This document shows, in pieces, positions 35,701 through 64,000 of a stretch of DNA of 64,000 nucleotides; the stretch's first letter is position 1, and each line of letters starts with the position of its first letter. The notes below the pieces were generated by a model. The model was not told the origin of the DNA, ran no database searches, and saw only the letters and a program-made list of their open reading frames with translations. A program made the position numbers and the translations under genes. This stretch comes from Mesaphorura yosii (taxonomy: Eukaryota > Arthropoda > Collembola > Poduromorpha > Tullbergiidae), in contig WIXG01000315.1 of assembly GCA_009869945.1 (NCBI GenBank), forward strand, positions 28,793-92,792, written 5' to 3'.

Positions 35701-35966
35701 CTTCGTGGACTCAGAAACTTCGGAGATGCCAGCGATGTTTTCAGCAGACACACGGAACATCAACTCCGAATCTGTCCGGAGAGACTTTAGCGTGATTGTG
35801 GTCTCCTTCGTTTCATGCTTCTCCCAGGTTAAAAATTCTTCTTTGTCGTGGGACTCTAGAATGTACTTTGTGATCGGACAATTTGAGTATGGCTCCTTCC
35901 AGAAGAGAGTTATGGAATTATCTGTGACTTGAACAACTTCAGGTGGATCTGGTTGGGCTGGTTTCT
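32797..35966 (-). other. Titin C-terminal Fn3/Ig region and tail
   Basis: Order: Fn3-1 (35966-35602, PDPPEVVQVTDNSITLFW), two Ig domains (end of that exon plus 35534-35039), a 60-nt Ser/Arg exon (34980-34921, RRRSRSSSVAS), Fn3-2 (34847-34472, three exons), Fn3-3 (34400-33954), Fn3-4 (33889-33529), Fn3-5 (33459-33067), then a 67-codon last exon (32999-32797) including the stop. Fn3 landmarks are visible: IEW, LKW, LQW and VEW on strand B/C, YxFRIxAxN or equivalent near the end (YKFRIFAENPMGVG, YFVRIFARNEVGFS). The tail, rich in Glu/Ser/Thr and then aromatic residues (YFFRIWYY), matches no domain I know. No kinase domain follows. Confidence 0.85.
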
Positions 35967-38900
35967 CTGTTAGACATCAAACAAATTTTTATGCTTGTGA
36001 AAAAATTATCAGCATCAGCATAGAAAGAAGGCAGTCTATACCTCGGACTATCAGTTTGAAGCTTGCTTCCGCTTCGCCACAATTGTTCCTTAACTTCAAT
36101 GTATAGTTTCCGCTCTCATTCGTTTCAGCCTTGGTAATGTGGTATGTGCTCTTGTACTTTTCAGTTTTAACCGATTTGGTGAGAGCCTTGTTTTCGTGAA
36201 TCCATTCAATCGCCGGCGCCGGAATTCCCTCATACTCAATTTCAATTGAAATATCATCACCCTTGTTGACATACAATTCCTTCTCGAACGGACGGAATTT
36301 CGGAGATGTTTCGATAACTGAAAAATAAAGATTCATAACTCATAGCAGACCAAGAAAGAAAATATTGCAAATTCCACCTTAATACCTACCTTCAAACTGA
36401 ATTTTTGTACTGGTTTTAACATTGGAACAAACAGCGGTGTACTCGTCTTCTGTGTGGACTCCTGAAATGTGCAATGTTCGAACACCTCCATCCCTTGTGA
36501 TTGTGTACTGAGGCGATTTTGTGTTGATTTCCTTTCCATTGCTGCAGTGTTTCATTAAAGGGCTCGTTAGCTTCAAGACCATTTTCATACTTCAGAAAAA
36601 CTTACCAAAGCCATGTAACTTTAGCGGTGGGCTTGGAAATCTCAACCGTGAGTGACACATCGCCATTCTTCTGCGCTGGTGTGATGTCGGGTAGTTTTCG
36701 AATAAAAGTTACTTTGGGTTCTAGAAATATATAAAGCCGGTAGTACCAAAATATTGATGACAGAATTCTCATTAAGATCATTAAATACTACCTTGGACTG
36801 TTAGTTTGGCCTTGCAAGTCTGATCGCCCACAGAGCAAGAGTAAGTTCCCTCATCCGATAATTCACTGTTGTACACCATTAACCTTTGGCGTTTCCCGTC
36901 AATGGCCAATTGAATATGTTCAGAGAATTGGATTTCAACGCCGTCCTTGAACCACCGGACCAACGCGTCTCCTTTGGAGATTCGGATCTCAAAAATACCA
37001 CGCTCGCCTTGAACAACAGTGACGTCTTGCATGGGCGACAAAATCTCAGGAGAAAGTTCTGAAAAACAAATTCTAGATTGAGAAAACTAGCATTTAAATA
37101 ATCTTGCAGTACCCAGCCAAGTTTTCTTACCAATCACCGTTAGTTCACCCGTGCATTCCTCATCCCCAAGAACGCATGTGTATTCTCCTTCATCGTGAAC
37201 ACTCAGCTCTTTGATGATGAGTTTCCTATCTTTACCATCAACAACAAACTCAATTCGTTCATCCTCAACAAGTTGTTCGCCATCTTTGTGCCAAGTAACT
37301 TTGCCTCCGGTAACTTGTACCGTAAACACTGCCTCTTCGTGCTCAGCGTGTTCCAGGTCAGTTAGCTTCTTGATAAACTGTTCTTGTTTCACAATATTTG
37401 CTGTATGCTTGACTTGACCGTATTTGTTCTTCAGCAGCACGCTATACACACCCGGTTCCTCTACGACCAACGAACAACTTTCGTTTGTCTTGTCCACGTA
37501 TTTCGCGGCAGGAATTTCGACATCGTCTTTGTACCATTTCACAGTGGTCGGATTTCCGGTGTACTTCACCTTGAGCGTGGCAGGCTGCTCTCCGATGGAT
37601 TGTGGTGGAAATGTCTGTATGAATTTTGGTGGTTGCTCGGAAATTGTGAGCGTAGCGGACGTTGATATTGAGCCGTGCTTATTCTCGGCACTTAAAACGT
37701 AATCACCATCAGATTCGAGGCGAGCCTTGCGAATAATTAGTGTGAAAGTGTTTTCAGTCTTCTCGATTGTAATTTCCTCTGTCTCGGTTACTTCAATACT
37801 GTTGTGATACCACGTGACCTTGGGAAACGGTTTGCCAATGATTTTGGCACTGAATGTGACAGGTGTATCGGAACGTGCTGCGAGCGGTACTAAAGGCTCA
37901 ATCACAATTGGAGCAAATTCCGATTTCGGAATCACTTGAAGCTCAATCGAATTCATTGCTTTTCCCTCAGAATTTTTGGCTACTATTTGGTACGATCCTT
38001 GTTCGCTGAGCTGAACGTTCTTGATATGGGCGATGCAGCAGTACATGTGCACGTCCGCAATCACGTTGATAGTGGCTCGTTTTGTCTCGAGGAACTTTTC
38101 GCCGTTGAAGTATAATTCAAGTTCTGGTTCTGGGACACCAACAAGTCGGAATTCCAAATCTATGTCTTCGTCCTCTGTGACAATTTTAGTCTGTGGTCGA
38201 ACGGTGAATGTTGGCGGAATTCCTTCGAGGATGTCGGCCAGTGAAGATTCCCTTGAAAGCGACATTCTCGAAATCACTGTTGAATCGGATGACCCGTGAT
38301 CGGAAAGTGGTGCTTCAACTATCAGTTCGGCTGTTGTTGACGCGAATCCAAGGCTGCAAAATATCATGCGTGTAGACACAATTGAATATATTCATTCCGA
38401 TTCCGATTTAAAGACTGATTAACAGTACCTGTTCTTGGCCACACAGGTGAATATTCCGGCGTCTTCTGGGAACACTTCCTTGATAACAAGTGTTGCAGTA
38501 TGAGTTTCAGTATCGTAGAACGCCTATAGCAAAGTTCAAGTTATTCAAAGTAGAAGAAATGTGCATTTGGCCTGGAACATTATTACCTGGAAATCTTTCG
38601 ATGTTTTGATGATTTGCGTCTGCCTGAACCAAGTGATAGTTGCGTCTGGTGAAGCTTCAACCTGGCACTCAAATTGAACTTCTGATCCATCAATAAAAGT
38701 TTGTGATTTCAAAGAACGTATAAATCTCGGGGCAAGCTTTCTTTGCCCTTTCTTCGGTTCTGTTGGAAGCGAATATTATTATGTATAAATGGTTTCATCT
38801 TCACAAGAGGCGACGACGATGACTTACCATCAAACACAGGTAGTTTGTCGATCTTTTCTCGAATCTTCTTCTGAACGTAGTCGGGATAATTGTTCTCAGT

Positions 38901-41900
38901 CATCAAGTACGAAGATGGAACCCAGCCCTTCTCCATTGTTAAATGCTTCTTGACAAACCACCAGTCGGCATTTCCGGTTTCTTTATAGAATAACAAAAAA
39001 TAGACAGAAATTCTACCACAATTCTAATACAAGGTTTCAGACGTGGTTGTGATACTAACCGATAACATATACACGGTCGCCTTCAATCATGTTCATTGCA
39101 GTAACATCGTTCTCGTCAGCCACGTAGGATGTGACAGCGAAGTAAACTGATCCAGCTGGAATCTCCTCTACAACCAGCGACTCTTCTTCCGGTTGAATTA
39201 TCACGCTCAATGCAGCTTCTAAACATTGAAAAATTAAGCTGTTCGTAATGCGCTAAGGACAAGATGTAAATTCTGAGTATACCGTCTTCAAGTGTAGGCG
39301 CAGGTGATCGTGGTTTCTTCGGCATCTTGACCTCTGCATGTTCTTCAACTGCTTCACCAGTTACGTATTCTCTCTCCGGACGAACGCTGAACTCCTCCTC
39401 TTCCTCTTCATCGGCAATGTAAATCTGCGGTCCTTTAAGCTGTTTCTTTTTCTTGAGAGGAAGACTGACACTGGGCTGTTCTTCCTCTTCTTGCTGAATG
39501 ATAATGCCAAGGCTGGCTTCCTCCTCCTCCACAGAGTACGTCTTTTTGGGCTTCTTCAGCTTGACTTTGAAATCACCTTCCAACTCTTCATACACTTGAT
39601 CAACCTGCTTCAATGTTATGCTTGCTTCTTCCTCAAAATCTTCTTTGTGGAACGGTATTTTTGGCTTCAAGGTGATTTTCTCTTCGAGGAACTGCTCGCC
39701 CATTGATATCGGAGATGGCGGTTTTCTTGAGAGTGTGATTTCTTCTTCCGGCTCCTCGGTGATTTGAAGTGGCTGCGACGGTCTGCGCTTGATTGTGATT
39801 TGTGCGACTTCCTCCTGCTCTTCAGCTTCGAGTGGTTGAACTCTCTTTACAGTAAGCTCTTCTGCCACCTCCTCCACTTCTTGCTTCTTGGGCTTTTTCT
39901 TCTTGACAGTAACCTGTTCAGAAACTTCCTGCTCCTCAGGCTGTTCAGCAGGTATTAACTTCTTGATAGTCACCTCTTCCGCCACTTCCTCGAGTACCTT
40001 CTCCGGCTTCTCTTTAACGATGGTCACTTCTTCAGAAGCCTCCTCTTGTTCGCTTTCCTTTGGAGCCACCTTTTTAATTGTGACTTCCTGTGAGGTTTCG
40101 TCAACGACATCCTTCTTCTTTGGCTTCTTTTTTATTGTGACTTTCTCGGCGACTTCTTCCTCCTCGGGCTCCCTTGGCTTGGTGATTGTGACTTTTTCAG
40201 CAACCGCTTCAGGTGACTTTTTCTTTTCCACTACGATTTCCTCAGTAGTCTCAATGATTTCTGTCTCTACTTCTTGCGGAACTTCTCGTCTAACTGTAAG
40301 CTGTGCTTCTTCGGGGGCCTCTTCCACGACCTTCTTCTTTGGTTTCTTTGCCTTCACTTTCACATCCTCTCTCGCTTCTTGAACTTGTTCCGGCTGTGGC
40401 TTTTTCACCTGCAGTGTGACCTCTTCACTAACTTCTTCAGTTTTTTCAACTTCCGGCTTCTTCGGCTTAATGATGACCTCTTCAGACACCTCCTCTTCAG
40501 TGACTGGTGCCTGTGGTTGTTTCTCCCGTCTAATGATGACTTCTTCAGTAGTTTCCTCAATCTCCGCCTGTGCACAAATTAGTTGAATAAGAAAGTGGAA
40601 AATACATCGAGTCATGTAAATCACTTACCTCTTGTGGCACTTCCTTTCTGATGGTCAACTGCACTTCTTCCGGAGCTTCCTCCACACCCTTCTTCTTTGA
40701 CCTTTTCTTTTTAACCGTAACTTCTTCGGTGACTTCTTTCTGTTCTTCCGGCACAGATTGAGGTTTCTTAATTGTCAGCTCTTCGGCAGTCTCTTCGACC
40801 ACTTCTTCCGCTTTTGGAGCCTTCTTGATTGTAATTTCTTCAGTGACTTCTTCCACCTCGGCGGTATGAGGTTGCTCCTTTTTAATTGTCAGCTGAACTT
40901 CTTCGGTCACCTCTTCAACGCTCTCTTTCTTTGGCTTCTTTTTCTTCAGGATAACTTGCTCGCTGACTTCCTCCTCCTTCACTTCAACTGGCTGAGGCTT
41001 TTTGATGATAAGTTGTTCAGAAACTTCTTCCACTGGTGCTTCCGGCTTCGGAGTTTTCTTGATGACAACTTCCTCTGTCACTTCTTCAGCTTCAGCCACC
41101 TGTGTTTGCTCTTTCTTAATGGTGAGTTGGACTTCCTCCGTGGTCTCATCCCCGCTCTTCTTCGGCTTCTTTTTCTTGATTACAACCTCCTCGGTTGCTT
41201 CTTCAATCGGCGCCTCCGCCTTCGGAGTTGGCCTGATTGTTACCTCTTCGGTGACTTCCTCTGTCTCTACGGCTTGAGGCTGTTCTTTCTTGATTGTTAG
41301 CTGCACTTCTTCTGGTGTCTCATCCACGCTCTTCTTTTTGAGTTTCTTTTTCTTTAGAGTCACTTGCTCAGTCACTGTCTCTTCTTCAACAACTGGCCGT
41401 GGTTTTGTCACAGGCTTGAGTGTAACTTCCTCTACGGTCTCTTCCGGCTGTTCAGATTGTGGCAACTTCACGGTGAGCTCTTCCGCTACCTCCTCTGCCT
41501 GGATCTCTTCCACTTTTGGAGCACTCTTTATTACAACTTCTTCAATGACTTCCTCAGTCTCAGCACCTTGCGGCTGCTCCTTCTTGATTATTAGCTGAAC
41601 CCCTTCCGGAGCCTCCTCCACAGTTTTCTTCTTGGGCTTCTTCTTTTTGATTGTTACTTCTTCTTTCACTTCTTCGACTTGTTCAGGCTCCACTGGCTTC
41701 ATTTCGATCGTTACTTCCTCAACAACCTCTTCTGGAGCTGGCTGGACTGGTGCCTCTTTTTTTATTGTAATCTCTTCTACAACTTCCTCTTGCGGTGCCT
41801 CGACTTTCGGAGTCTTTGTGATGGTGACTTCCTCAGTTACCCCCTCCGCTTCCGCGACCTGAGGTTTTTCTTTTTTGATCGTCAGCTGAACCTCTTCTGG

Positions 41901-50900: not shown

Positions 50901-53900
50901 CTGTGGTCGATTGGTGTTGCTCGGGCAGTTCCTCCGTTGTGAGCACTTGCTCCGATTCTGCAGACTGCGACAGTTGGACATTGAGCGATTCAAACGTATT
51001 GATGCCCGGCGTCGCATTTGTCTGAATCATGGAGAGTTTCATGTCTGTGCCCACCTCTTTTTCGGCCACCTGGACTTGCGCGGTTTCAGTGGCGTCCTGC
51101 AAGTTGAATGACTCTTCTGCCGTTCTTTTGTCCAAGGGAAGCTGAAATTCTGTGGAGGTTTCGGAGTCTAGTGGTACCACATCCATTCGAGATGGCGCTT
51201 CAACAGCTTCAAGCGAAAACTCAGCCTGCTTCGAATCGGTGGCTGCTGCCGTGTACACGCCTTCACTCTCATGTGCAATCGTTTCGGTCACGGTACCCGG
51301 CTTTAGTTCCAGAGTGTCAACGCGGGCTTTCGCTTCTGGTCGTGCTTCAGCTTCGCAATCTTTTTCACGTTCATTCGCAATTACGACAGTGGAGTGAACT
51401 TCTGTCTTCGGAAAGATGTTCACATCTGCGGAAGTGGTTTCCAAAACGGGCTTGGTAAATTCGGATTCTTTCTCAAATACATTCTTCAATTCCAGAGACA
51501 CGCATTCCAAATTGTCTGTTCCGCCTTCTGCAGCGTTAACGACTGGACTTTCGAATGGGCTCAAGTTTTGTCCAAGTGAATCCTCTATGGTACTTGTTTC
51601 GATCTGCACACTAGATTCAGTGTTGACTTTTGCAGTGGCTTTAACTCCAGACCGCTTTGCTCCTTCCTCATACAATCCTTCGCTTTCAGTGACGAGATTC
51701 GTAGTGGTGGTCAGTGCATTTTGCTGCACAAAAGATTTATTGGCGGCTTCCGTTGGGACAAACAATTCCGGATGGTACTTGTCGGGCTTATCGGCGGTGA
51801 TGGTCTCTTCCACAGTGATCGGAATTGCAGTGTTGAGTTGAACTTTAGCATGGTGCTTTTCTTCTTCCTTCAGAAGCTGCTCAGCGTCACTGGCCAGCAC
51901 CTGACTGACTTGAACTCCTTGCACTGAGCCATAAGAAGAAACTTCTGCTTTCGTCAGACTTGGCCTCCTGTCGGGTTTCAGTACAGCCTCTGCCTCGTTA
52001 ATATTTGTGAGAAGCACGTCTGTTCCAATTGCTGGCATGATTTCCAACCAGGCGGTGGATGCTGCTGCTTGCTCGACGGGGCCGAACGCAGTATTCGACT
52101 CGGGCTGTTCAACCATCACGCTTCTCTTCTCGTTTTCATACGCTTGTGTGGCCTTTGTTGTTGCTGGCTTGCTGTCGACTAATTCTGCTTCGAATTGACC
52201 ATGTTGAACTTGCGAGATATTCAGTGGCAAATGAGTTGCGCCGAGTAACTCCGTCGCGGTTTCCTGCTCCTTTGGTTTTGGCTGTTCTAGAATGGATTCC
52301 TTCTCGTGTTGCAGGGTCGTTTGAACAACGACCGACGTGTGATCAGCCGGTAGCAGTGCCTTTGCCTGTTCTTTTGGAATTGAGCCACCAAAATGCACTG
52401 CAACATCTGTAGACGAAGGAGCACACGCGTATTCAGGTAGTGCAATTGGAGCCATTCGAGTTCCTCGCTGAACCTCCTCAAGCTCACTCACGGTGTCTTG
52501 AGTGATCGTAATACTTTCAGTTCTTGGTCTGTTTTGGATTGTGCCTAGACGTGGGTGAAGATACAGAAAATGGACAACACATCAACATACAGAAACGTAA
52601 ACGCCACAAGAACAAGAACAAATGTGTACTGTACAAGTGCCCGAATGTTTTTGGAAGACAGTATGCAGCGTGTGCTTTCTCCCTTACATGATCTTTGGAA
52701 TACTTTTCCTTACCATCTCCAATTGCCATTAGTTTAATTGATTGATTGTACAAGTGAAAGTGATTTACATATGTACAGCATGCATTTGAGAGACAAATAA
52801 ATTAATTCAGCTCTTACCTTGCAGGACTTCCACCTTTCCAAACGTTCGTTTCTCTTCGCCTACTTGCACTGCAGCGGTTTGTGCAGTGAACGTATTGATG
52901 TCTTCGACCGTCAGGAGAGCCATTACTTCCTCCACCGCGACAACTTGCACTAGTTTCGCGAATGCTTTCAGACCGACCTGCGTCACGGATGATCTTCGCC
53001 TCCATGAGCCAATAGACTCTTCAGTAACAACTTCTTGAATGATTACAGAGTGGCCAGATCTCTCCACAAGGTGGATCATGGCTTGATCAACCTGCAATTT
53101 TAATTATGTTGGATAAAAGACAGGCAAGGCAGCAGAGCATCAAGTCTTTCACACTTCGTGGTCTCACCTTCGGAAGAATCTTAAACTTTTCTCCTACTTG
53201 TTGCAGAGCAAGAATTTCCTGCACTGTAATCCCACTTCTCACCAAATAGCCAACAGTAGCTATTTCCCTGAGCGGCTCAACTAGTGCCGGTACGGGTTCG
53301 AGCGTCTCCATCAATAAATCAACCAGTTGTTCAACCGAAGATTGTGAAATTTCGGGCGTAATAATTTCCTCCAGGGCGGGTTGGTCTTTAGGCGCCTTCT
53401 GCTTCTTCTTGTGAGGGAATGGCTTTGGCTTTTCAAGTTCAACTCCGCCTTCCGGAATGTCAGCGGGCTTGAATGGCAGCTTTCCCTTTGAATCTTCTTC
53501 GACTGGAACTTCGGGTTTTGGTTTGGATATCGGCTTCAGATGAACTTTCTCCTCTTCAGGAACTTCCTGAGGGATTTTGCCTTTTCCAAGCTTCAACTTT
53601 CTCTCCTCAGGCGCTTCCTCCTTCGTCAGTTTCTCTTTCGGTTTCAGTTCTAAATGCCGTGTATCCTGAACATCCGTTGTCTCTGTCGGTTTCATCTCCA
53701 CCGGTTTACTTATTTCCATCTTTTCCTTTTCCTCCCACTCGGGCTTCTCGTACACTTCCAGTTCAACTGGCTCTGACAAGATTTCTTTCGTCTCAATGGG
53801 CTTGAATGGCTTCAGTCTCTTCTGTTTTTTCACTTTCTTCTCTTCTTCTTCGACTGGTTCCAGTGGAACAGGAACGAACCAAGTGAGTTCGCCTTCTTGA

Positions 53901-56900
53901 GTTGCTCGTTCAATTTGCCTGTCAACCTTCTTCAAGGGAACGACCTCCATTTGGGATGGCGCCACTGCAACTTGTTTCGCCCTCGGAGCTTTCAAAGAGA
54001 CTTGCTCCATTTCCGCCTCGACGATTTCTTTTGGCTTAATTTCAGACGGCTTCAGTTGAACGTCCTCTGCGTGTTCCGGCAATTTGGACTCGGCAGCCGG
54101 TGTGACCTCCTCGGTGGGCCCTTCTTGCTCAGCACCTGCCCTCTTCTTTGTTTTCTTTCCTCTCCTCCAGGGAAGTTTCCCTTCAGGCCCTTCTAATTCG
54201 TAATCGCCGGGCGGGCGTTCATCGGGCTTGAATTTGAGTTTGTCATCTGGTGTTTCTTCTTCCTTCGGACCGCCTGGCTTCTTGAACGGTTTCAAGACGA
54301 CTTTCTCTTCCGGTTCGGGCTTCTCAGGAATTTTCCCTTTGCCAAGTTTCAATTCCGGTTTCTCCTCTTCGATTTCAGCCTTTCCTCTTATCTTTGCTAC
54401 AGTGGAGTCCGACTGTTCAGCCTCGGTTGTACCCGTTTCCGTTGGCTTTTCCTCTGGAGTCGGCTTTGGTTTAGGTCTTCGTTTTCGAGCGCCTTTCTCT
54501 GGAGTTTCTAATTCCACACCGCCTTCACCGGTATCCGGTGCATCGAATTTGATTGGTTTTCTTTTACCAGAGTCGCCGTCAGTCTCAGGTTTCGGCTTTG
54601 TGACTGGCTTTAATTTAATCTTTTCTTCTTCGGGTGTTTCTTGAGGTATCTTTCCTTTGCCAAGTTTCAGCCCACCACCTTCTCCCGGTTTCGTCGCGGT
54701 GGGTTTCGTCTTCGGCTTGATTTCAACATGCCTTTCCTGTTGAGTTTCAATGACTTGTGTAAGCTTTTCGGGAATTTCTGGAGTTTCAACTTCCTTTTCC
54801 CTCTTGTCCCATTCTGGCTTCTCATAAACGTCCAATTCGGTTGGTTCAGAAAAAATTTCTTTAGTTTCAATTGGCTTGAACCCTCTCAACTTCTTCTCCT
54901 TCTTGATTTTCTTCGGAGCTTCTTCTTCTGGCGGCAAAGGAGTGGGGACCAGCCAAGTTAATTCACCTTCCTGTAACGCTCGTTCAAGGTGTCGTTCGGC
55001 TTTCTTTAAGGTGACGACTTCTTGCTGTGGTGCTTCCACCCTTTCTTTTGCTTTCGGGGTTTTGAGAGGCACAGCTTCCATTTGAACTTCCACAATTTCA
55101 ATGGGTTTGATTTCAGATGACTTCAACTTTACGTCTTCAACACGCTCGGGAAGCCTAGACTCTGGCTTGACTTCCTTCGCCGGGGCTTCTTGGACCGCCT
55201 CAGCCTTCTTTTTAATTTTCTTTCCTCTTCTCCAGGGCATTTTTCCTTCTGGCTCCTCCAGTTCATAATCTCCTGGCGGCCTCTCCGATGGAGTGAATTT
55301 AAGCTTGTCGCCCGACTTCTCTTCTTCCTCAGGTTGTTTCGGCTTCTCAAACGGCTTGAGTACAACTGGCTCTTCTATTTCTTCTTCCGTAGGCAGTTTT
55401 CCCTTGCCAAGCTTGAGACCAGGCTTTTCTTCGTCTTTCTCAGGTTTAGTTCGCAGCTTTCCAACTGTGCTAACGGGTTGCTCAACCTCAGCTTCAACAA
55501 CCTCAGCAGGTTGCTCCTCGGGCGTCGGCTCTGGCTTGGGTTTCTTCTTTCGCAGACCTTTCTCCGGCTTCTCCAATTCAACGCCTCCTTCACCGATATC
55601 CGTATCTTCGAACTTGATCGGTTTCGTCTTGTCTCCGATGTCCTCTACTTCAGGTTTCGTCTTTGGAATCGGTTTGAGCTTGATCTTTTCTTCCTGAGGT
55701 TTTTCTTCTGGCAGTTTTCCTTTGCCCATCTTGAGCGGGGTTCCTTCGCCTGGCTCAGCGACCCCCGGTTTTGGTCTCGGTTTCACCTTCGAGAACTCCT
55801 CCGTCTTGGTCGGAGTTTTCTCTCGACTTGATCCACTGGAATCTTGTCGGTCAGTTGATTTACGCCTCTCATGCCATTCGGGTTTCTCATACTTCTCAAG
55901 AACGGCCTCTTCAAAAACAATTTCTTTCAACTCCAGGGGCTCGAAACCAGATAAGATCATTTCTTTTCTCGGCTTCTTTTTCTTTTTCGGTTCAGGAAGG
56001 AGAGGCGTTGCAGTGAAAGTGAACAACTCTCCCTCCTGTGTTACTTTTTCTTTATACATCTCGCGTTTTTTCAATTCCACGGTCTCCATTGTTTCATGAG
56101 TTTCAGCCTTCTGCATTGGTTGAGCCGCCGGCCTGAGTTGAACTTGTTCAATCTGTGGGGCCTCCTGCTTAACAACTTCAGTCTTTTCAGGTTTCTTCAA
56201 GCTGACTTTCTTGTATGCCTGCATGGCTTTCACCGATTCGGGTAATGATTCCTGCTTTTCTATTCGTTTGATTTTGACCTTCTTCACCCTTTCGCCGGTT
56301 GGAAGTAGCGAGGGTTCGGGAATTACGAATGTTGTTGACTCCGGCAGCTGATTTATATCTGTAGACACATCAGGTAGACTTACGATTGGTTGCTCCTCAG
56401 GAATATCAGGCGACTCCGGAGCAGTTTCTTCAATCTTTGGAGCCCAGCGAACCCTCTTCGGTCGCTCCGGTTTTTGTTCTACTGGCGCTTCAGCTTCTGT
56501 CGGCTGCTCTTCTCCCTCCTCAGGCTTTTCTGACTTTGGCAGTTTCACTTTCTTCTTTTTCAGCACGCCCTTCTTCTCCTCCTCCACCTCCTTCTCTACC
56601 ACCTCTTCTTCCTTCTGCTTTTTCCTGATGATTCTCCTTTTCTTCTTGACTTCTTCTGGTGTAACTGCTGGGTACTGTTCCATTTCCTGCACCTCTTCCA
56701 CGACTTCAGTTGCGACCTGCTCTTCAGCTACCTCCACCTGCTTCACTTCTTTGTCTTCTAGCTCTTCCTTTTCGCTCCATCTAGAAATGCGCTTCTTTTT
56801 CTTAACTTCTTCCATTGGCTCCGGCGTAATTGAGGGCTGCATCTCAGCTTCCTGCACGACCTCAACTATTTCAGTTACGCCTTCTTCCTTTGGTGCTTCC

Positions 56901-59900
56901 TCATCAGCTGGTTTCTCGATTTCCTTCTGTCCCCATCGTGTAACTCGCTTCTTCTTCTTGACCTCCTCCAGAGATTTCGGAACCATTGCTGGGTATTGCG
57001 TTTCTTGAACTACTTCAACGATTTCCAATGGCTGCTCTTCTTTGACAACCTCTTTCTCTTCAATTATTTTTTTCACAACTTCTTCAGTATCTTTCTGGTC
57101 CCATCTTGAGCCGCGCTTCTTCTTCTTGACTTCTTCATATGGCTGTGGAACGATAGCTGGATATCGTGTTTCCTGTGTAACTTCAACAAGCACGGTCACT
57201 TCTTCCTTCTTTTCCGCAGATTGGGGTATGAGGGCTGGTTGTGGAACCTCTTTGACAGCTTCTACTGCTTCAGGTTTCGGCTTCCCCTTAATTGATATTT
57301 CACGCTTTTTCTTTTCCTCCTCCAGGTCTTCTTCCTCAATTTCTTTTGCCTCTTTCTGGCCCCATCGTGTAACTCGTTTCTTCTTTAACTTCTTCTCGTC
57401 TTTCAATCCTTGATCCGGCTAATTACAATTTCGTGACACATTAGTAAATTGATTGATTAAGATTACCTAACATCGAATTGCTCTGATTCAATTACCTGCT
57501 TTGGTTGTTCCTCGACAGGCTTCACCTCCTCGACCTCGACTTTCTCCTTCTCTGCAGTTTCGACCGGTTCTTCGGTCTTTGCGGCTAGCAAGGCTGTATC
57601 TTCAACTTCTGTGGTTTGCTGCTGCCAACGAGTCGGGCGTTTCTTCTTCGACTTATCCGGGACCTATTTAAAATTTAATTGATTAAAGGTCATTTTTTCT
57701 GCACATGGGATTGGAGGTTAATTAGACAAGATTCACACCTTCCCCTCAACCTCTTCGACGATTTCGCTAATTTTCACCTTCTGCCCGTCCTCCACATCCT
57801 CCTTGTAACCCCATGGAATCTCTTTCGGCTTTTCGTCGAATGACACTCGTCGAGTGTCTTTCTTAGGCTAATTGCAACGAAAAGGCAGCGTAGAAGGATC
57901 GACATGAACGGAAGACGGTTGAAGTATTGCACAAACTTACCTTTACTATCTCCTCTTCCTCAGTAACTTCTGTGATTTCCACTGACGAAGACGCTTCATC
58001 CCTTTCTGTGGGCTTAGTTGGTTTCTTCTTCCGAAGAATCTTCAGAATGCCTTTTGACTTTTCGATTTCCGCGTCCTCTTCGCTGTCAATTAGAAATTAA
58101 ATAGTATTGAACAAGAGCATGATTTCTCGTGCGTCGTATTAGAGAATGTCTGATGTGAAGTGCTTACGCTTCATCTTTGCGCAGTCTGTCCTCCGGTTTA
58201 ACCTCTACAAAGATTCACAAATGTGAAATAAGTAGTCATGAATTCACGATGACGTAGTTAGTTTTTCTGATGAAACTTCAAGTAAATGTCTTAACTTAGT
58301 TTCAAGGAATCTTACCGATAATTTGGATCCAACATTTTGATTTGACTGTTCCGACTTCATTAGTGAGCTTGCAAGTGTACTTTCCATGCTGTTCCGGACG
58401 GATGCGCCGAATTACCAGCGTACTCTCAGCTTCCGTCGTTTCAATATCAATCGAGTCGGAGCGTTGAATCATTTTATTATTCAGGAACCATTTCACCTCG
58501 GGGCGAGGTTTTCCGACGTATGTCACTTTTAACCGGACAGTTGTGAGCTCTTCAACTCTTTGATCAATCAGCTCATTTGTGAAAGCTGGAGTAACTTTCT
58601 CCACTAATGAATGTAAAATGATGCAGTCAGTGAATTACATGATCAGAACCGAAAGAGTTAGATTCAAACTTGAATTTATTAACCACACACATGCAAAGAA
58701 AATCGCACACAATACAAAAATACAACGAATACAGTAAGTATGATGTTAGTGGTCCTGCGACGGGTTGCTCGTGAATTCATTAAAAAACTCCAACATTTCC
58801 TGTTCTGATGGGATGGGAAAATGAAAAGCTCGCTGCTGCTGTGAAGAAGTCGGTGGTGATATAGAAACGGAGCTTGCGTAGCTTTTCAGGCTCCCTTGAT
58901 CATCACTGGCATTGCTGCTGCAACTGGTAACTTCCAAAATGGGACTCAGACGATGGTAAGTAAAGTCAATTACTTCATCGTCATCGTCACTATCATCGTA
59001 CAAGACAAACTCCAGGTTGTTGTTAGTAAGATCACTATAATTAGGATAAACACTCAAGGGAAATGACTCAAACTCGTAAATGTCAGGCTCATTATCTGGC
59101 TCAAACACGGAGTCAGGATCTTCGTCAGGAGTTAGCGTAGCGGTGGTCTCATGCTCGGAGTCGAGGGAATCAACGCTTAATGTGGGCAAAAATTCCGCAT
59201 AGGTACCTGGTGCTTTCTCTCCCCATTCTGGCTTCGGCTTCTCCTCAACTGACCTCGGTCCTGTGAAACCATAAATGCAAATTAGTTCATTTGTTCGACC
59301 GTGCTGGCATCTGTTTAAAGAGACATGTGACAATAATGGACTGTGGACGCGAACATTTAACAATTAAGGGAAGATTGAAACGAAACAAAACGAAACGCAA
59401 CATTTAAACATGTAAACGAATCTGCAAAGAGAGAAGATTCCTGCGTGCGTTCTGCGTTTAAAAATAAATCGCGATATTGAATTTGAATTAGCATTGCTAA
59501 AATAAAAATGTAAATAAATCTTGTAAATTCGGAATGAAATTGCTGACCATCAATCACGGTAACATTTGTTAATGTTGTATCGACTCCGTATTTATTCCTG
59601 GCTTCAACCATGTACTCGCCGTGGTGATCTGGAAATACTTCTGTGATGACGAGTTGACTCTTCAAGGTTTCTCCTTCATCGATGGTCAGGATCTGAAGGT
59701 CTTCGGATTCAACAATTTCTTCCGATTCTTTGTACCAGTACAATCTTGGCCTGGGATGTCCCTGAACACGAATCTCAAGCCTAACAATAGATTATTCGAA
59801 TTATCCACCGTGTCGAGTGCTGATCGTGCTGAACATTCAAGACTTACGTTGCAGGTCTCAAGCCTACAGGGAACTGCATGTGCTGAGGCAGGCGTTGGCT

Positions 59901-62900
59901 AAATTGTGGCGCTTCTCCGAGATCCAAGTCCTCGCCTTCGCTAAGCAAGTCCTCAATTGACGAATCTTGAACGGAAGGAAGTGTTGCTATTTCGGAGTCA
60001 GGAATGTATTCATATGACTCGACGCCAACGTTGGTCTCAGTTGAGGTCCGACCGGCCTTATTGGTTGCGACGCACTTGTAGAAACCTTCATCTTCCGGAA
60101 AGACTTCATTAATTTTGAGCTCACAAACTCCATCTTCGGTCTGTGTCATTGTCACATCACGATTGGGCTGGATAGGTTGATTGTTATGCAGCCAGTGCAC
60201 TCGCGGTGGAGGAGTTGCAATGACTTGGCACACGAGCCGAGCCTCTTCTCCGTCCATCACAAAAATGGGAACCAATTTCTTGACGAAAACGGGAGGAACT
60301 AGCTCCTCTGTGAATGCTTCGGGAATTACTTTGAAACTGGCCGTCGAAGTGATTGAACCAACCACGTTTTCCGCTCGGACTGTGTACTCGCCTTCATGTG
60401 AGAAGTCCACTTTGGGAATCATAACAGCCGAACGATTGTCTGTAAGCGATTGCACAAGTGTAGTCTGGACAGGTGCATCATTATGAAACCACTGGAAGGA
60501 GGCCGCTGGAAAGGATTCCACGAGGACTTCCAGAATGCCAACTTCCTCAAGTGGAATTGTCTGTGGTCTGAGAGGTTTAATGAATCTAGGCGGCTTTGCT
60601 TCAGCCATGCGCTTTTTGGGCTCTGTAAATCATAATACGTATGAAGTCAACGTTGAACAACAAAACACAGTGAAATAAGCGAATGATTCTTACCAATGAC
60701 TCGAACTGAGCCAGACGTGCGTGCTTCTCCGCCTTCGTTGGTCACTCGAACTTCGTACTTTCCAGCGTCCTTTTTGTCCACATTCGGAATGACAAGGGTT
60801 GTCACGAATTCCTCTTCCACAATTTCCACTTTTTCACGCGGTAGTAAGATTTGTCCATTATAAAACCACTTTACATCGGGTTTTGGTTTGCCTGAATACT
60901 TAACTTGAAGATCGAGAGGAGTGCTGATATCAGCGACCACAGCTGGCAATGGCAGAATGATCTTGGGAGCTTCAATAACTCTCGCAGTTTGGAGGATTGG
61001 TGCCTCAACTGTTACACCATGTGACGCGTTTTTAATTTGCCTACTTAAATCTGGATTTAAGAACTTACCGATGACGATATTAGTCCTTGACACCGCTCTG
61101 CCAAAGTCATTTGTTGCTTCGCAGCGGATGATGGTCTCTTCATCCACGGATGTCACTGAGAATATCTGGAGCTGAGCTACACCAGTAGCAGAATCATAGG
61201 TTGGTTTGAAGCGAGCGGATGGTGTCACCTGCTCCTCACCATGGTACCATGTAACCGTTGGCACTGGTTTTCCTTTCACGGTACATGTAAGAGTTGCCTG
61301 ATCGCTTATAATTTGCTGAGGTTTCAATGGCAATTCAAAGTGTGGAGCTTCTCCTTCAAGAATTGATTCCTTTCCTGTTGGCACAAATGAATTCATTGTT
61401 TGAGCACTATCTCAGATATTTAGAGATCCCCGCAACCAATCCGAAAAATTCTTTCAATTCTTAGAGTTATGCTATGTATGAAGCGAAACGCAAAAGCATA
61501 GTTTATTGCGAAAACTGCGTGCTAATTTCAAGCTCAGTGTTAGTAATTGCAAGACTTCAAACCTCGTCCTAGCTAATTGGTGTAATACACCTCGCACGGC
61601 ACTCCCACAAGAATTACCGATCACGACGAGATTTGTGGTCGTTTTCGCTGATCCGGCGGTGTTCTTTGCAAAGCAACTAAACCTTCCTTCGTCCAGCTCC
61701 ACTGTCTCATATATCTCAAGCGTTATTGTATTGTCCTCACGATGAATGCGGAATTTCTCTGAAGATTTAATAGGTTCCTCGTTCTTAAACCACGTAATTT
61801 CTGGTTCAGGACTTCCTTCAACTTCAACAACGAACTTTGTGACATCGCCAAGTTGGGCGACTTGGGGCTTCAGCAGCAGTGTAAATTTTGGCGGAATTAA
61901 CTTCTTCTTTTTAACTCTTTTCAACTTTTCAAGTTCTGGCTGTTTTAGCTCAATTGTAGCGATGGACAACTTCTTGATCGGGGCAGGTACCTCTCCTGTG
62001 GGAGATTCAGGCAATTCTTCAATGTCCACATGCGCTTCGGAATATGCCTTGGGGAGAAATTCCGCCTCCGAAATTACACGCTCCTCTTGCTGAACACAAA
62101 TCTCTGTTTTATATTCCACGGTTTCTTCTGTCACGTAAGTTGGCGCTGACTTCAGCTTTAACGGAAGTCGGCGGAGAGACTCGTCAGGCTTCTTGATTTC
62201 CGCAGGAGGCTTCGCAGTCTTCTTCAGTCGCATTTGCAACAGAACTTCTTCTTGTCCAGTCGGTCGTATTTCTGGATAAGGCTTACCTTCTTGTACAACG
62301 TCAACCAACTCCAACGAAATTTCTTCCTCTGGACCTGCCTCCAGCGACTCTTGATCTCTTGGCCTTCGCTTCTTCTTCGAAAGAGTCGGTCTCGGTATTT
62401 CAAGTTCAACTCCGCCTTCCGGTATGTCAGCGGGCTTGAATGGCAGCTTTCCCTTTGAATCTTCTTCGACTGGAACTTCGGGTTTGGGTTTGGATATCGG
62501 TTTCAGATGAACTTTCTCCTCTTCAGGAACTTCCTCAGGAACTCTGCCTTTGCCTAGCTTCAAGGGTTCTCCCGGACCAAGATCCACTGGCACTGGTTTC
62601 TCCTTCGGCCTTAACTCCGAAGCGTCCTTTGGTAGCACGTTCTCAACTTCCTCACCCGCCTCTGTCCGTTTTGGTTTCTTAACTAGCTTCACTTTTACGC
62701 CCCAATCCGGCTTCTCATATTTCTCCAGCACTACCTCTTCTGAAACAATTTCCTTCAATTCGAAAGGTTCAAAACCCCTAAGTATATATTGCTTGCGAGG
62801 TTTCCTCGGCCTTGGCGGTTCAGGTGGTCTCGGAACAGCGGTGAAACTAGTTAACTCGCCCGGCTGAATAGCTTCCTGAACAAAGCTTTCATGCTTCTTC

Positions 62901-64000
62901 AATTCAACAGTCTCCATCGTCTCATGTTTTACCGCATGGTGCACTATCTGTGCCGGCCTAAGATGAATTGGTTCCAACTGAGCAGACAATTTTCTCACTA
63001 CAGCCATTGTCTTCACATGCTTTAGCTTGACCTTTTGATACTGCTCAAGTGCCTTTTGCGACTCCGGCTTACACTCTTCTAATATTTCTGCAATACTGAC
63101 TTTCCGAGTACGACGTTTCTTCTGCCTTTTTCTTTCCCCAGTGGGAAGCATAGTAGGCTCGGGGATTGCAAGAGGCGGCATGTCCTCGACAGTCTCAAGT
63201 TCAGAAATGTCCACTCTACCAAACAACACCTCCCTCGATTGATCAGAAAAAGCGGCATCCGGGCTAGACTCACATAACGTCTTCACCAATTCAAGTACCC
63301 CTTCGATTTCTTGAGCTACATCGGCCGATTTTCCAGCCTCAATAGCTTGACGAACTTTCTTCACTTTTTTCTTCATCTCCGGTCGTGGCTGTGGATGAAA
63401 TGTAAATGGAATTCCTTCTTGGACAACGACTTCCAAGAATTGTTCAATTTCTTCTAACTCTGGCTGAACATCTTCCAATTTCTTCTCTCTGATGGCTTTC
63501 TTCACACGCTCTGCTTTCTTCTTCATTTCTGGTGCAGGTGTTGGTTTGTAAGTTACCGGTTCACCAGTTTGCGTCACTTCAGTCAAGTACGTTTGAAGTT
63601 CAGCGAGTTGTGATTCAGCTTCTTTGGTTTGACCGGAACTGATGGCTTCTTTGACTTTCTTAATTTTCTTCTTTACTTCTGGTCGTGGTTCGGGTTTAAA
63701 TGTGACGAGTTCGCCAACTTGTGTAGCCTCCTCAAAGTAAGTTTCAATTTCTTGGAGACTTTCTGAAATATCTTGCTTCTTGCCTGATTTGACGGCAGAT
63801 TGTACTTTCTTCACTTTCTTTGCCAGCTCTTCTCTTGGTGTTGGTTTGAATACGAACGGTGTACCTTCCATTGTCATTTCAGTCAAGAAAGTTTGAATTT
63901 CTTCGATTTCTTGAGCTACATCGGCCGATTTTCCAGCCTCAATAGCTTGACGAACTTTCTTCACTTTTTTCTTCATCTCCGGTCGTGGCTGTGGATGAAA
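32797..64000 (-). CDS. sls: Sallimus-like titin, C-terminal ~8,960 residues (5' end beyond window)
   Basis: Titin-like elastic protein of muscle, expected to link Z-discs and thick filaments. Exons in coding order: 64000-61618, 61374-61069, 61008-60694, 60622-59848, 59780-59548, 58603-58316, 58204-58168, 58082-57941, 57867-57739, 57663-57496, 57418-53168, 53091-52818, 52544-47706, 47143-40629, 40567-39283, 39218-39060, 38980-38828, 38759-38587, 38523-38429, 38353-37131, 37058-36792, 36720-36606, 36541-36390, 36317-36042, 35966-35602, 35534-35039, 34980-34921, 34847-34767, 34700-34630, 34561-34472, 34400-34104, 34023-33954, 33889-33785, 33717-33529, 33459-33254, 33166-33067, 32999-32797. They total 26,886 nt, an exact multiple of three, with phase kept at each junction. 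The frame is open at the right edge. Visible in this part are 17 Ig domains, one SH3 and five Fn3, with long Pro/Glu/Val/Lys repeats and no kinase. SH3 plus five Fn3 and no kinase matches insect Sallimus; nematode TTN-1 and vertebrate titin carry a kinase. Exon ends rest on splice consensus and domain continuity, not transcripts. Confidence 0.9.
36042..38759 (-). other. Titin Ig-domain cluster 2 (eight I-set domains)
   Basis: Eight Ig domains follow the SH3: one over 38759-38587, 38523-38429 and the start of 38353-37131 (APRFIRSLKS to TAELIVEAP); four within 38353-37131 (PPTFTVRPQT, APIVIEPLVP, PPKFIQTFPP, KQEQFIKKLT); one in 37058-36792 (PEILSPMQDV); one over 36720-36606 and 36541-36390 (PKVTFIRKLP); and one in 36317-36042 (SPKFRPFEKE). 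In the second domain the strand-C Trp is replaced (PELELYF). The exon of 1,223 nt carrying four whole domains contrasts with the domain-per-exon pattern after it. Confidence 0.88.
38828..39218 (-). other. Titin SH3 domain
   Basis: Two exons (39218-39060 and 38980-38828) encode one SH3 fold from VYFAVTSYVADENDVTAM through MIEGDRVYVIE and GNADWWFVKKH to KGWVPSSYL. The double Trp and the GWVPSSYL motif are the usual ligand-groove landmarks. SH3 domains bind proline-rich peptides, and the neighbouring spring is proline-rich. A single SH3 at this point is characteristic of arthropod Sallimus. The intron interrupts the fold between the two halves. Confidence 0.88.
39283..42270 (-). repeat. Titin PEVK-like spring with ~97-residue higher-order repeat
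   Basis: Short 14-16-residue units of the type EEVxEEVTIKKxxPxx fill the end of exon 47143-40629 and exon 40567-39283. They are organised into larger units of about 97 residues marked by KKKKPKKxxVEEAPEEVQL, then KKEQPQ, a TPKxEAP unit and one or two further units. The composition is almost only P, E, V, K, T and I, matching the definition of titin PEVK segments that act as entropic springs. After about 39850 the pattern loosens and gives way to a basic/acidic linker that reaches the SH3 domain. The two exons join in phase 0 across a 61-nt intron. Confidence 0.85.
42280..43690 (-). repeat. Titin ten ~46-residue KPKE repeats
   Basis: Ten copies of an L(A/G/S)(R/K/Q)PKE-type core occur at about 139-nt spacing from about 43620 to 42370 (LGRPKED, LSKPKED, LAQPKEE, LAKPQES, LAKPKEA, LGQPKEE, LARPKEE, LGKGKEE, LARPKEE, LARPKEQ). 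Units carry a TESEVPVKKAKxKK stretch or an AEEKExP variant, and an acidic EEKxGEL segment. The two variants tend to alternate, which suggests a dimeric duplication unit. The sequence is highly charged and should be disordered and spring-like. Confidence 0.8.
43750..52544 (-). repeat. Titin degenerate ~38-40-residue Val/Glu/Thr repeats
   Basis: The whole exon 52544-47706 and the first 3.4 kb of exon 47143-40629 encode about 2,750 residues of weakly conserved units. A typical unit has a small-residue/Pro stretch (ATPxxxV or LTPxxxV), then VQVxQVxxxE, then a Glu/Ser-rich stretch and a basic-Pro end. Examples are SVQVSHVNLSEKEARLEEQ, GVQVTQVSADLATTDL and SVQTEQTTPSESV. Alternating hydrophobic residues in the V-x-V core suggest short beta strands in an otherwise disordered chain. 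The array crosses the 562-nt intron at 47705-47144. Unit borders are too degenerate to count exactly by eye. Confidence 0.7.
47144..47705 (-). other. 562-nt titin intron with possible read-through stop
   Basis: The donor GTAATA after 47706 is weak. If unspliced, the frame continues 15 codons (ending SIAIECSARDL) to TGA at 47659-47661. Splicing to the acceptor TCGTTTAG before 47143 keeps phase 1 and joins LIAD to DSDLPDEF. This intron is several times longer than most others in the gene; no further exon was seen in it. Confidence 0.55.
52818..53370 (-). other. Titin predicted small helical domain between spring segments
   Basis: The end of exon 57418-53168 and exon 53091-52818 encode about 155 residues with ordinary globular composition, unlike the K/E/P-rich flanks. 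Segments such as VEQLVDLLMETLEPVPALVE, LREIATVGYLV, VQEILALQQVG, QAMIHLVERSG, GLKAFAKLVQVVAVEEVMAL and VEDINTFTAQTAAV read as amphipathic helices. An internal RRRSSV motif could be a phosphorylation site. No known domain was recognised. The split by a phase-0 intron falls in the middle of the domain. Confidence 0.6.
53400..56330 (-). repeat. Titin ~357-residue super-repeats in the 4.25-kb exon
   Basis: Three tandem copies start near METVELKK (about 56080), EVVTLKKAERH (about 55010) and MEVVPLKKVDR (about 53940), a spacing near 1,070 bp. Each contains in order QEGELTWxVPxPL, GFxPxETKEI, YEKPEW, LKLGKGKIP, EEKIKLKPxxKPKPE, GEGGVELE, a second LKLGKGK with VVLKPF, RPPGDYELExPEGK and PWRRGKK. The third copy is shortened, passing from the first LKLGKGKIP block directly to GGVELEKPKP. 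The composition (P, E, K) predicts an extended, PEVK-like elastic chain, and the conserved short motifs suggest regularly spaced binding sites. Confidence 0.8.
56560..57418 (-). repeat. Titin RW repeats (KKKKRxxRWxxKE)
   Basis: About five degenerate units of roughly 55-60 residues occur at the start of the 4,251-nt exon. Each pairs a basic motif such as EEVKKKKRVTRWGQKE with an acidic stretch and a VEVVQETQYPAxVP motif. Variants of the core are KKKRVTRW, KKKRGSRW, KKKRISRW and KKRRIIRK (the last has lost the Trp); a related KKKRPTRW sits one exon upstream. A Trp flanked by basic residues inside a disordered chain is a plausible short binding motif. I do not know this repeat from a named family. 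Confidence 0.75.
57496..58204 (-). other. Titin small linker exons before the spring region
   Basis: Four short exons (58204-58168, 58082-57941, 57867-57739, 57663-57496) encode charged, disordered sequence. Motifs include VKPEDRLRKDEA, ILRKKKPTKP, TRRVSFDEKPKEIPWGYKED and KKKRPTRWQQQ. The last is the first copy of the RW motif that recurs in the next exon. The three later exons in this group end in phase 0, so the 142-nt exon would shift frame if skipped while the 129- and 168-nt exons could be skipped in frame. The RVSF motif resembles a basophilic kinase site. Confidence 0.75.
58316..58603 (-). other. Titin single Ig domain (seventh in window)
   Basis: One exon, in phase 1 at both ends, encodes a complete I-set domain from VEKVTPAFTNELIDQR to CWIQIIG. 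It has the strand-C Trp in VKWFLNNK and strand-F GKYTCKLTN. It is the first exon specific to the long isoform, directly after the alternative terminal exon, and leads into the charged spring region. Confidence 0.85.
58675..58680 (-). terminator. Polyadenylation signal for the short titin isoform
   Basis: AATAAA on the minus strand lies 66 nt downstream of the alternative stop codon and 72 nt upstream of the next Ig exon. The position, between an in-frame terminal exon and the next constitutive exon, supports intronic polyadenylation. Confidence 0.55.
58746..59260 (-). CDS. Alternative terminal exon giving a short titin isoform
   Basis: An acceptor TTTCACAG just before 59260 joins in phase 1 to the donor after 59548, the end of the sixth Ig domain. 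The exon encodes 170 residues and stops at TAA 58746-58748. The tail begins GPRSVEEKPKPEWGEKAPG, is strongly acidic (DDSDDDDEVIDF), Ser-rich further on, and ends SEQEMLEFFNEFTSNPSQDH. A minus-strand AATAAA at 58675-58680 follows. It lies within the 944-nt intron that the full-length form removes to reach the Ig exon at 58603. Its use would produce a protein that lacks all downstream spring, SH3 and Fn3 regions. Drosophila sls makes shorter forms such as kettin in the same way. The feeding donor is weak (GTCAGC), which would suit regulated splicing. Confidence 0.75.
59548..61904 (-). other. Titin Ig-domain cluster 1 (six I-set domains)
   Basis: Six Ig domains occur in order: PPKFTLLLKP to TTTNLVVIG (exon ending 61618); APHFELPLKP to SRTNIVIG (61374-61069); APKIILPLPA to SGSVRVIG (61008-60694); PPRFIKPLRP to ASFKVIPE and PPVFVKKLVP to ETNVGVE (both in 60622-59848); and APQFSQRLPQ to TNVTVIDG, split across 60622-59848 and 59780-59548. 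Most show the strand-C Trp (ITWF, VTWY, VKWF, FQWF, VHWL) and the DxGxYxC-like strand F. I-set Ig modules in titins unfold or straighten under load and bind sarcomere proteins. The exons mostly end in phase 1, which favours domain shuffling. Confidence 0.9.
61905..62397 (-). other. Titin unique linker before the first Ig domain
   Basis: This part of exon 64000-61618 has no clear repeat. It is rich in Glu, Lys and Pro, with motifs such as ELVDVVQEGKPYPEI and LPLKLKSAPTYVTEE. The first resembles the VxVVQE-type motifs of the RW repeats further downstream. It leads directly into the Ig domain that begins PPKFTLLLKP. No function can be assigned. Confidence 0.5.
62398..63190 (-). repeat. Titin charged block A (paralogue of the exon-11 super-repeat)
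   Basis: From IPEPTMLPTGER through METVELKK, GFEPFELKEIV, VVLEKYEKPDW, LKLGKGRVPEE and EEKVHLKPISKPKPEV to GGVELE, this segment parallels the block at about 56330-55560 in the 4.25-kb exon. The low-complexity K/E/P-rich sequence should be extended and flexible, with short conserved motifs such as YEKPxW that may bind a partner. The end of this block is nearly identical in DNA to 53431-53570. Confidence 0.75.
63302..64000 (-). repeat. Titin 50-residue tandem repeats with 600-bp higher-order period
   Basis: Five units of exactly 50 codons begin at 64000, 63850, 63700, 63550 and 63400; the last is partial and diverges near 63302. Each starts with an aromatic residue and a KPxPRPE-like motif, then KKKxKKVxxAIxxGK and a Glu-rich amphipathic stretch (EIxxFLxE), ending xxGxPF(V/T). 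The pattern predicts short alpha-helical hairpins or coiled coil joined by proline-rich turns. Unit 5 repeats unit 1 at 600-bp spacing with identical DNA, so the array has a four-unit period and probably continues to the right of the window. I do not recognise this repeat as a named family. Nematode titin also has long tandem repeats proposed to be elastic. Confidence 0.85.

What the first reader, a model, noticed from the sequence alone, without database searches (positions are those of the whole stretch)
58675..59548. Regulated alternative last exon in the middle of a giant titin gene
A phase-matched exon with its own stop and an AATAAA 66 nt downstream lies in the intron after the sixth Ig domain. 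It would convert a very large titin into a truncated form that ends in a new acidic, Ser-rich 170-residue tail. The donor that feeds both outcomes is weak (GTCAGC), as expected for a regulated choice. The logic parallels kettin in Drosophila, but the tail itself matches nothing I recognise.
Basis: partly seen in the sequence, partly recalled or inferred. Interest (0 to 1): 0.78.

Follow-up and report, generated by a model that had tools for sequence, protein, structure and literature searches.

The report
Early-stop exon inside arthropod titin gene
A giant muscle-spring gene of an arthropod-like animal seems to carry, in its middle, an optional last exon that would end the protein early with a new acidic, probably unstructured tail; early endings of this kind are already known in fly and human titins, so this is a new example of a known trick, not yet backed by RNA data.

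Summary
Exon E (end of the sixth Ig of the block) stops at 59548; a phase-1 exon F runs 59260-58746 (170 full codons, TAA), with AATAAA 66 nt on; exon G starts at 58603. F is very probably real: coding periodicity above all 179 null windows, codon scores above all 188 control ORFs, an estimated coding start 4 nt from the acceptor, GC of 34/46/32% across its borders, no in-frame Met before residue 156, and an acceptor above all 34 modelled ones. It sits in the longest of 34 modelled introns of an sls (I-band titin) gene, with PEVK springs on both sides. The natural reading is an alternative last exon giving a short isoform without the second PEVK, SH3, Igs and Fn3 domains. Fly kettin and vertebrate novex-3 follow the same logic; fly Sls-700 may be the positional counterpart (untested). 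"Weak donor, so regulated" is only partly supported (7th weakest of 34). New here: GU repeats plus UGCAUG between stop and AATAAA; all four sense UGCAUG sites of the gene's 3' half in its three longest introns; and a 54-nt in-frame cassette inside F. Expression and conservation could not be tested.

The parts
61618..64000 (-). Exon A: PEVK-type sequence (contig and window end at 64000), then Ig1 at its 3' end
   Evidence: I-set at residues 704-793; all 451 250-residue windows of the first 700 residues exceed 40% P/E/V/K
61069..61374 (-). Exon B, Ig2
60694..61008 (-). Exon C, Ig3
59848..60622 (-). Exon D, Ig4, Ig5 and start of Ig6
59548..59780 (-). Exon E, rest of Ig6; donor ATG|GTCAGC used by both outcomes
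   Evidence: I-set match; donor 7th lowest of 34, only one with C at +3
59261..59547 (-). Intron part before exon F, with a branch-point-like ACTAAT at 59286 (label recalled) and the acceptor TTTCACAG at its end
   Evidence: GC 34%; acceptor best of 55 AG sites and higher than 34 of 34 modelled acceptors; ACTAA at 59286
58746..59260 (-). Exon F, proposed alternative last exon: 170 full codons after the split glycine, TAA at 58748-58746
59207..59260 (-). Possible 54-nt phase-symmetric cassette inside F (donor CAG|GTACCT at 59206) encoding a PEVK-like PRSVEEKPKPEWGEKAP
   Evidence: 0 stops when spliced to G; donor would rank 13th from the bottom of 35; 66.7% P/E/V/K in the first 18 residues against 28.1% for the whole tail
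58681..58745 (-). 3'UTR before the poly(A) signal: U/GU-rich, TGTA at 58733, 58724, 58716; TGTGTG at 58711, 58691, 58689; TGCATG at 58695
   Evidence: G+T content of the 60 nt in the top 0.05% of windows
58675..58680 (-). AATAAA
58316..58603 (-). Exon G, Ig7, first exon of the long isoform after the choice
53168..57418 (-). Exon M, second PEVK region of the long isoform
   Evidence: all 1,167 250-residue windows above 40% P/E/V/K
33529..39060 (-). Approximate C-terminal region of the long isoform: SH3, I-set domains, at least five Fn3

Best explanation
Exon F is an alternative last exon of an sls (I-band titin) gene. Shown by sequence: after the Ig1-Ig6 block the transcript can be spliced in frame from 59548 either to 58603 (long isoform with Ig7, a second PEVK region, a unique region, SH3, Igs and Fn3 domains) or to 59260, where a 170-codon frame ends in TAA followed by a GU-rich stretch and AATAAA. 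Inferred: splicing to F with cleavage some 10-35 nt past AATAAA competes with splicing to G. The short isoform would lose the C-terminal SH3/Ig/Fn3 region, whose fly counterpart reaches the myosin filament, and end in a flexible acidic tail that could dock a partner. The choice is probably set by muscle splicing factors of the CELF/Bruno and perhaps Rbfox kind.
For: Frame, phase and stop as described. Period-3 signal 6.19, above all 179 null windows, maximum 5.17. Codon log-odds 29.3 (gene-trained) and 50.5 (non-PEVK-trained) against best controls of 25.9 and 33.4 among 188 ORFs; the two other forward frames score -28.1/-16.5 and -12.2/5.8; the part of the open frame before the acceptor scores -28.0 and -19.1. 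Best coding start 59264 against acceptor 59260. GC 34/46/32% upstream/F/downstream. A Viterbi gene model whose training left F out still chose this acceptor and frame. Acceptor above 34 of 34 modelled ones and best of 55 AG sites in the intron. Longest of 34 modelled introns, 944 nt, median 73. Only Met of the tail is residue 156 and none lies in the open frame before F, so not a stand-alone gene. One match in its genome at E <= 10. Precedents: kettin uses an early poly(A) site (PMC9886278, passages); bru1 RNAi turns Kettin-GFP on in flight muscle (PMC11081514, passages).
Against: No RNA and no relatives were available, so use and conservation are untested. Synonymous codon choice in F is not clearly gene-like (P = 0.07). 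In the gene-trained score the first 51 codons give 37.1 and the rest -7.8 (segments summed). The Viterbi model, which had no terminal state, left F at 59054 through a donor scoring -0.53. AATAAA occurs by chance in 5.9% of such stretches. Two other strong AG sites (59421, 10.03; 59310, 9.16) would give tails of only 21 or 9 residues. The E donor is not unusually weak. In flies the tested sls event depended on Bru1 and was unchanged by Rbfox1 knockdown (PMC8742874, passages).
Confidence: 0.82

Rival explanations
1. Composite exon: the first 54 nt of F are also used as an internal cassette (donor CAG|GTACCT at 59206) that inserts an 18-residue PEVK-like linker between Ig6 and Ig7; only when that donor is bypassed does the exon run on to the stop and poly(A) signal, so splicing and polyadenylation compete inside one exon.
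For: The 54-nt piece starts and ends in phase 1 and reads through to G with 0 stops. Its donor would rank 13th from the bottom of 35. The first segment of F has the highest coding score in both trainings (23.4 and 18.0). The first 18 residues are 66.7% P/E/V/K; the first 16-mer matches PEVK motifs of the gene such as YEKPEWEEK (P = 0.030 against 500 shuffles).
Against: With the smaller donor set it scored 2.95, a level that about 11% of all GT sites reach, so a donor like this is expected by chance in an exon of this length. The 16-mer match is one of 32 tested, and another 16-mer (residues 121-136) scored better against shuffles. Coding signal continues past 59206 (codons 19-170: period-3 6.30, above all 314 null windows).
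Confidence: 0.12
2. Not a used exon: a chance or decaying open frame in a long intron.
For: No expression data; codon choice only weakly gene-like; no protein family found.
Against: Periodicity, codon score, sharp GC borders, coding start at the acceptor and intact frame together.
Confidence: 0.08
3. Poison exon: F is internal, with a donor beyond the stop, and sends transcripts to decay.
For: GT sites exist between the stop and exon G.
Against: The one with a donor form seen in this gene (GTAATT near 58639, by eye) would leave an intron of about 36 nt, shorter than all the modelled introns, whose smallest is 56 nt; AATAAA and a GU-rich stretch follow the stop; a 170-codon coding frame is not needed for a poison exon.
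Confidence: 0.05
4. Known thing under another name: F is the orthologue of the C-terminal end of the fly Sls-700 isoform, so only its sequence is new.
For: Fly Sls-700 is a short isoform with Ig domains (Ig44) absent from most isoforms, and 4 of 52 fly Ig domains are kept for a short larval isoform (PMC9886278 and PMC9886281, passages). Here too the end lies in an Ig block between PEVK regions.
Against: The defining paper (Burkart 2007) is not held, and no fly sequence could be compared; here Ig1-Ig6 can be read through into the long isoform.
Confidence: 0.35

Closest known systems
Vertebrate titin novex-3 (TTN exon 48)
   Same: Alternative exon in the I-band part of the gene brings its own stop and gives a short titin of about 700 kDa (PMC5852582, passages); obscurin binding appears in the title of Bang et al. 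2001 as cited in PMC12198301 (paper itself not read).
   Different: Different gene lineage; novex-3's unique part is much larger (recalled); here a 171-residue acidic tail and a PEVK region before the end; no homology tested.
Drosophila kettin (short Sls)
   Same: Same gene type, early poly(A) site giving a short isoform, used mainly in leg muscle, with Bru1 keeping it off in flight muscle (PMC9886278 and PMC11081514, passages).
   Different: Kettin ends after Ig35; here PEVK sequence lies before the Ig block. The kettin part of this gene is not on the contig and was not found.
Drosophila Sls-700
   Same: Short Sls isoform with its own Ig domains (PMC9886278, passages).
   Different: Exon structure and tail sequence could not be compared.
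Immunoglobulin mu heavy chain composite terminal exon (recalled)
   Same: Works-like only: a splice donor competes with a poly(A) site.
   Different: Unrelated gene; applies only to the composite-exon rival.

Membership tests
sls / D-titin / I-connectin gene | Ig domains, PEVK regions and C-terminal Fn3 domains | tested here: met
   I-set, PEVK by the 40% rule on both sides, SH3 and at least five Fn3
sls / D-titin / I-connectin gene | Separate projectin/twitchin gene in the same genome | tested here: met
   C223 carries Ig-Fn3 super-repeats and a kinase-like stretch (identified by eye, no family scan)
sls / D-titin / I-connectin gene | N-terminal kettin-type Ig-linker array | tested here: inconclusive
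Kettin isoform end | Ends after the Ig-linker array (fly Ig35) | tested here: not met
   The 700 residues before the Ig block are PEVK-type
Sls-700 isoform end | Homologous tail and same exon position as the fly | not testable with these tools
   Burkart 2007 not held; no eukaryotic sequence collection
Novex-3-type early titin end | In-frame alternative exon with its own stop in the I-band part | tested here: met
Novex-3-type early titin end | Expressed as a short isoform | not testable with these tools
   no RNA data
Novex-3-type early titin end | Unique part binds obscurin | not testable with these tools
   no binding data; tail predicted without fold

The most novel reading that the evidence does not exclude
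An invertebrate counterpart of novex-3 evolved in the elastic middle of sls: one composite exon offers three outcomes (skip, 18-residue PEVK-like linker, or early end with an acidic docking tail), and a small regulatory island of GU repeats and UGCAUG placed between the stop and AATAAA lets CELF/Bruno- and Rbfox-type fibre-type regulators act directly on the poly(A) choice, deciding whether the titin spring reaches the myosin filament.
Probability: 0.1. Interest if true: 0.6.

Novelty: new member of a known kind. Interest (0 to 1): 0.4.

Why it matters
Titin length and anchoring set muscle stiffness and sarcomere length, and arthropods vary both by splicing. An early end between two spring regions would make I-band proteins that never reach the myosin filament. 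If the exon is used, it gives a precise, small target (one junction, one tail) for asking how a muscle chooses between an anchored and an unanchored spring, and whether fly and vertebrate titins reached early termination independently.

Tried and rejected
Kettin for comparison: C223 looked Ig-rich but is a projectin/twitchin-type gene by eye (Ig-Fn3 repeats, kinase-like stretch), and C442 looked regular (Ig hits about 430 nt apart) but is a Dscam-like gene by eye. So no kettin end could be compared.

Species: 18S searches failed twice; an arginine kinase fragment matched arginine kinases in the PDB, but the listing names no organisms. The organism stays unidentified; arthropod is inferred from gene content.

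Tail relatives: own genome one match only, itself, at E <= 10; Pfam 0 and NCBIfam 0; PDB 5 matches at E <= 1, best 0.00039 to a designed repeat protein with 0 stretches passing alone, judged chance. Viral, prokaryotic and plasmid collections were not searched because they hold no arthropods by design.

Fold: single-sequence AlphaFold2 of the tail, mean pLDDT 36.7, pTM 0.19, against 76.4 and 0.62 for the Ig7 exon handled the same way; fits disorder but, without an alignment, proves little.

Codon-choice test on synonymous codons: not decisive (P = 0.07). Stand-alone nested gene: rejected, no early Met. Bacterial promoter/terminator scan: 0 found, not relevant to this genome.

Full report
Where it is. 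The window is C315:28793-92792 of an unnamed 93-Mb genome and ends where the contig ends. On the minus strand it carries the 3' half of an sls-type gene: PEVK-type sequence, seven I-set domains, a second PEVK region, a long unique region, an SH3, more I-set domains and at least five Fn3. By the 40% P/E/V/K rule of PMC12063666 (passages), all 451 windows of the first 700 residues and all 1,167 windows of exon M qualify. A projectin/twitchin-type gene lies elsewhere (C223, by eye), as expected where I-band and A-band titins are separate genes (PMC12198301, passages).

Check of the observation. Exon E ends at 59548 in phase 1. Splicing to 58603 gives a long frame of 3,035 codons without a stop; splicing to 59260 gives a 171-residue tail and TAA at 58748-58746. 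AATAAA is at 58680-58675.

Is exon F real? Seven lines agree. (1) The open frame of 205 codons has P = 0.0004 in simulations. (2) Period-3 signal is 6.19 against a maximum of 5.17 in 179 null windows; the flanking intron pieces give 0.82 and 0.47. (3) Codon log-odds of 29.3 and 50.5 under two trainings exceed all 188 control ORFs from 1-32000 (best 25.9 and 33.4); those controls may include real exons of other genes, so the test is conservative. (4) The score changes sign at the acceptor: best start 59264, acceptor 59260. (5) GC is 34, 46 and 32% before, in and after F. (6) The acceptor beats 34 of 34 modelled acceptors. (7) The host intron is the longest of 34, 944 nt against a median of 73. 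One of the 34 introns (34629-34401) looks mis-modelled. The sole Met of the tail is residue 156, so the frame must be entered by splicing.

Against. Synonymous codon choice gives only P = 0.07. Under gene training the last 119 codons sum to -7.8, though their periodicity remains (codons 69-170: 3.63, exceeded by 0.6% of 314 windows). The Viterbi model had no terminal state and left F by a poor donor at 59054. AATAAA turns up in 5.9% of simulated stretches. AG sites at 59421 and 59310 score nearly as well and would give 21- and 9-residue tails.

The donor. GTCAGC is the only one of 34 with C at +3, but six others score lower; in the hand-checked set of ten it is fourth lowest. It is weak, not remarkable.

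The 3' flank. The 60 nt before AATAAA are 77% G+T, in the top 0.05% of windows, with three TGTA (P = 0.03 for three or more), TGTGTG at three overlapping or near places and one TGCATG. UGCAUG is the Rbfox site (PMC8742874, passages); GU repeats suit CELF/Bruno proteins (recalled). All four sense TGCATG of 33400-64000 fall in the three longest introns (944, 562 and 273 nt), none of five antisense ones does, and it ranks first of 180 letter permutations; this was noticed after the fact, on four sites. In flies, bru1 RNAi switches Kettin-GFP on in flight muscle (PMC11081514, passages). Against an Rbfox role, the fly sls event that was tested followed Bru1 and was unchanged by Rbfox1 knockdown (PMC8742874, passages). 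HOW lowers sls in larvae, with direct binding unproven (PMC3315481, passages); ACTAAC, a HOW/Quaking-like site (recalled), occurs at 59027 and 58750.

The tail. 37 acidic and 7 basic residues, 25 Ser; no family; no other copy found in the genome; low single-sequence confidence (36.7) where the Ig7 control reaches 76.4. Its first 18 residues are 66.7% P/E/V/K and match YEKPEW motifs of the springs (P = 0.03, one of 32 stretches tested). The first 54 nt can also serve as an in-frame cassette.

How it most likely works. Shown: two in-frame outcomes encoded in the DNA. Inferred: competition between splicing to G and splicing to F with cleavage; a short isoform without the C-terminal part whose fly counterpart reaches the myosin filament (PMC9886278, passages); a tail that stays free or docks a partner; control by muscle splicing factors.

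Known or new. Early ends of titins are known: kettin by an early poly(A) site after Ig35, mainly in leg muscle; Sls-700; novex-3 (PMC5852582, passages). The searches, in an open-access library only and judged from listings and passages, showed me no paper on an early end between two PEVK regions outside flies. I file it as a new member of a known kind; if it is the orthologue of the Sls-700 end, only the sequence is new.

Noticed in passing
window 58695, 52784, 47275, 47216 (minus strand): All four sense TGCATG (Rbfox-type) sites of the gene's 3' half lie in its three longest introns, 0 of 5 antisense ones do; the 273- and 562-nt introns flank very large spring/unique exons and may also be regulated.
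   Followed up: partly
window 63301-63400 and 63901-64000: A 100-nt stretch is repeated with 100% identity exactly 600 nt apart and at the very end of the contig; a PEVK-type 200-residue repeat array was probably collapsed by the assembly there.
   Followed up: no
window 53401-53596 and 62368-62563: A 196-nt piece is 89% identical between the PEVK regions on the two sides of the Ig block, suggesting exchange or recent duplication between springs.
   Followed up: no
window 34401-34629: The modelled intron appears to hold a missed Fn3 exon.
   Followed up: no
C442 around 30-38.5 kb (L030): Dscam-like gene, by eye, with an array of Ig hits about 430 nt apart, which looks like a set of alternative exons.
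   Followed up: no
C223 around 47-60 kb (L040, L045): Projectin/twitchin-type gene, by eye.
   Followed up: partly
C315:1691-8544 (+), outside the window: Further I-set hits on the opposite strand of the same contig, probably another gene.
   Followed up: no
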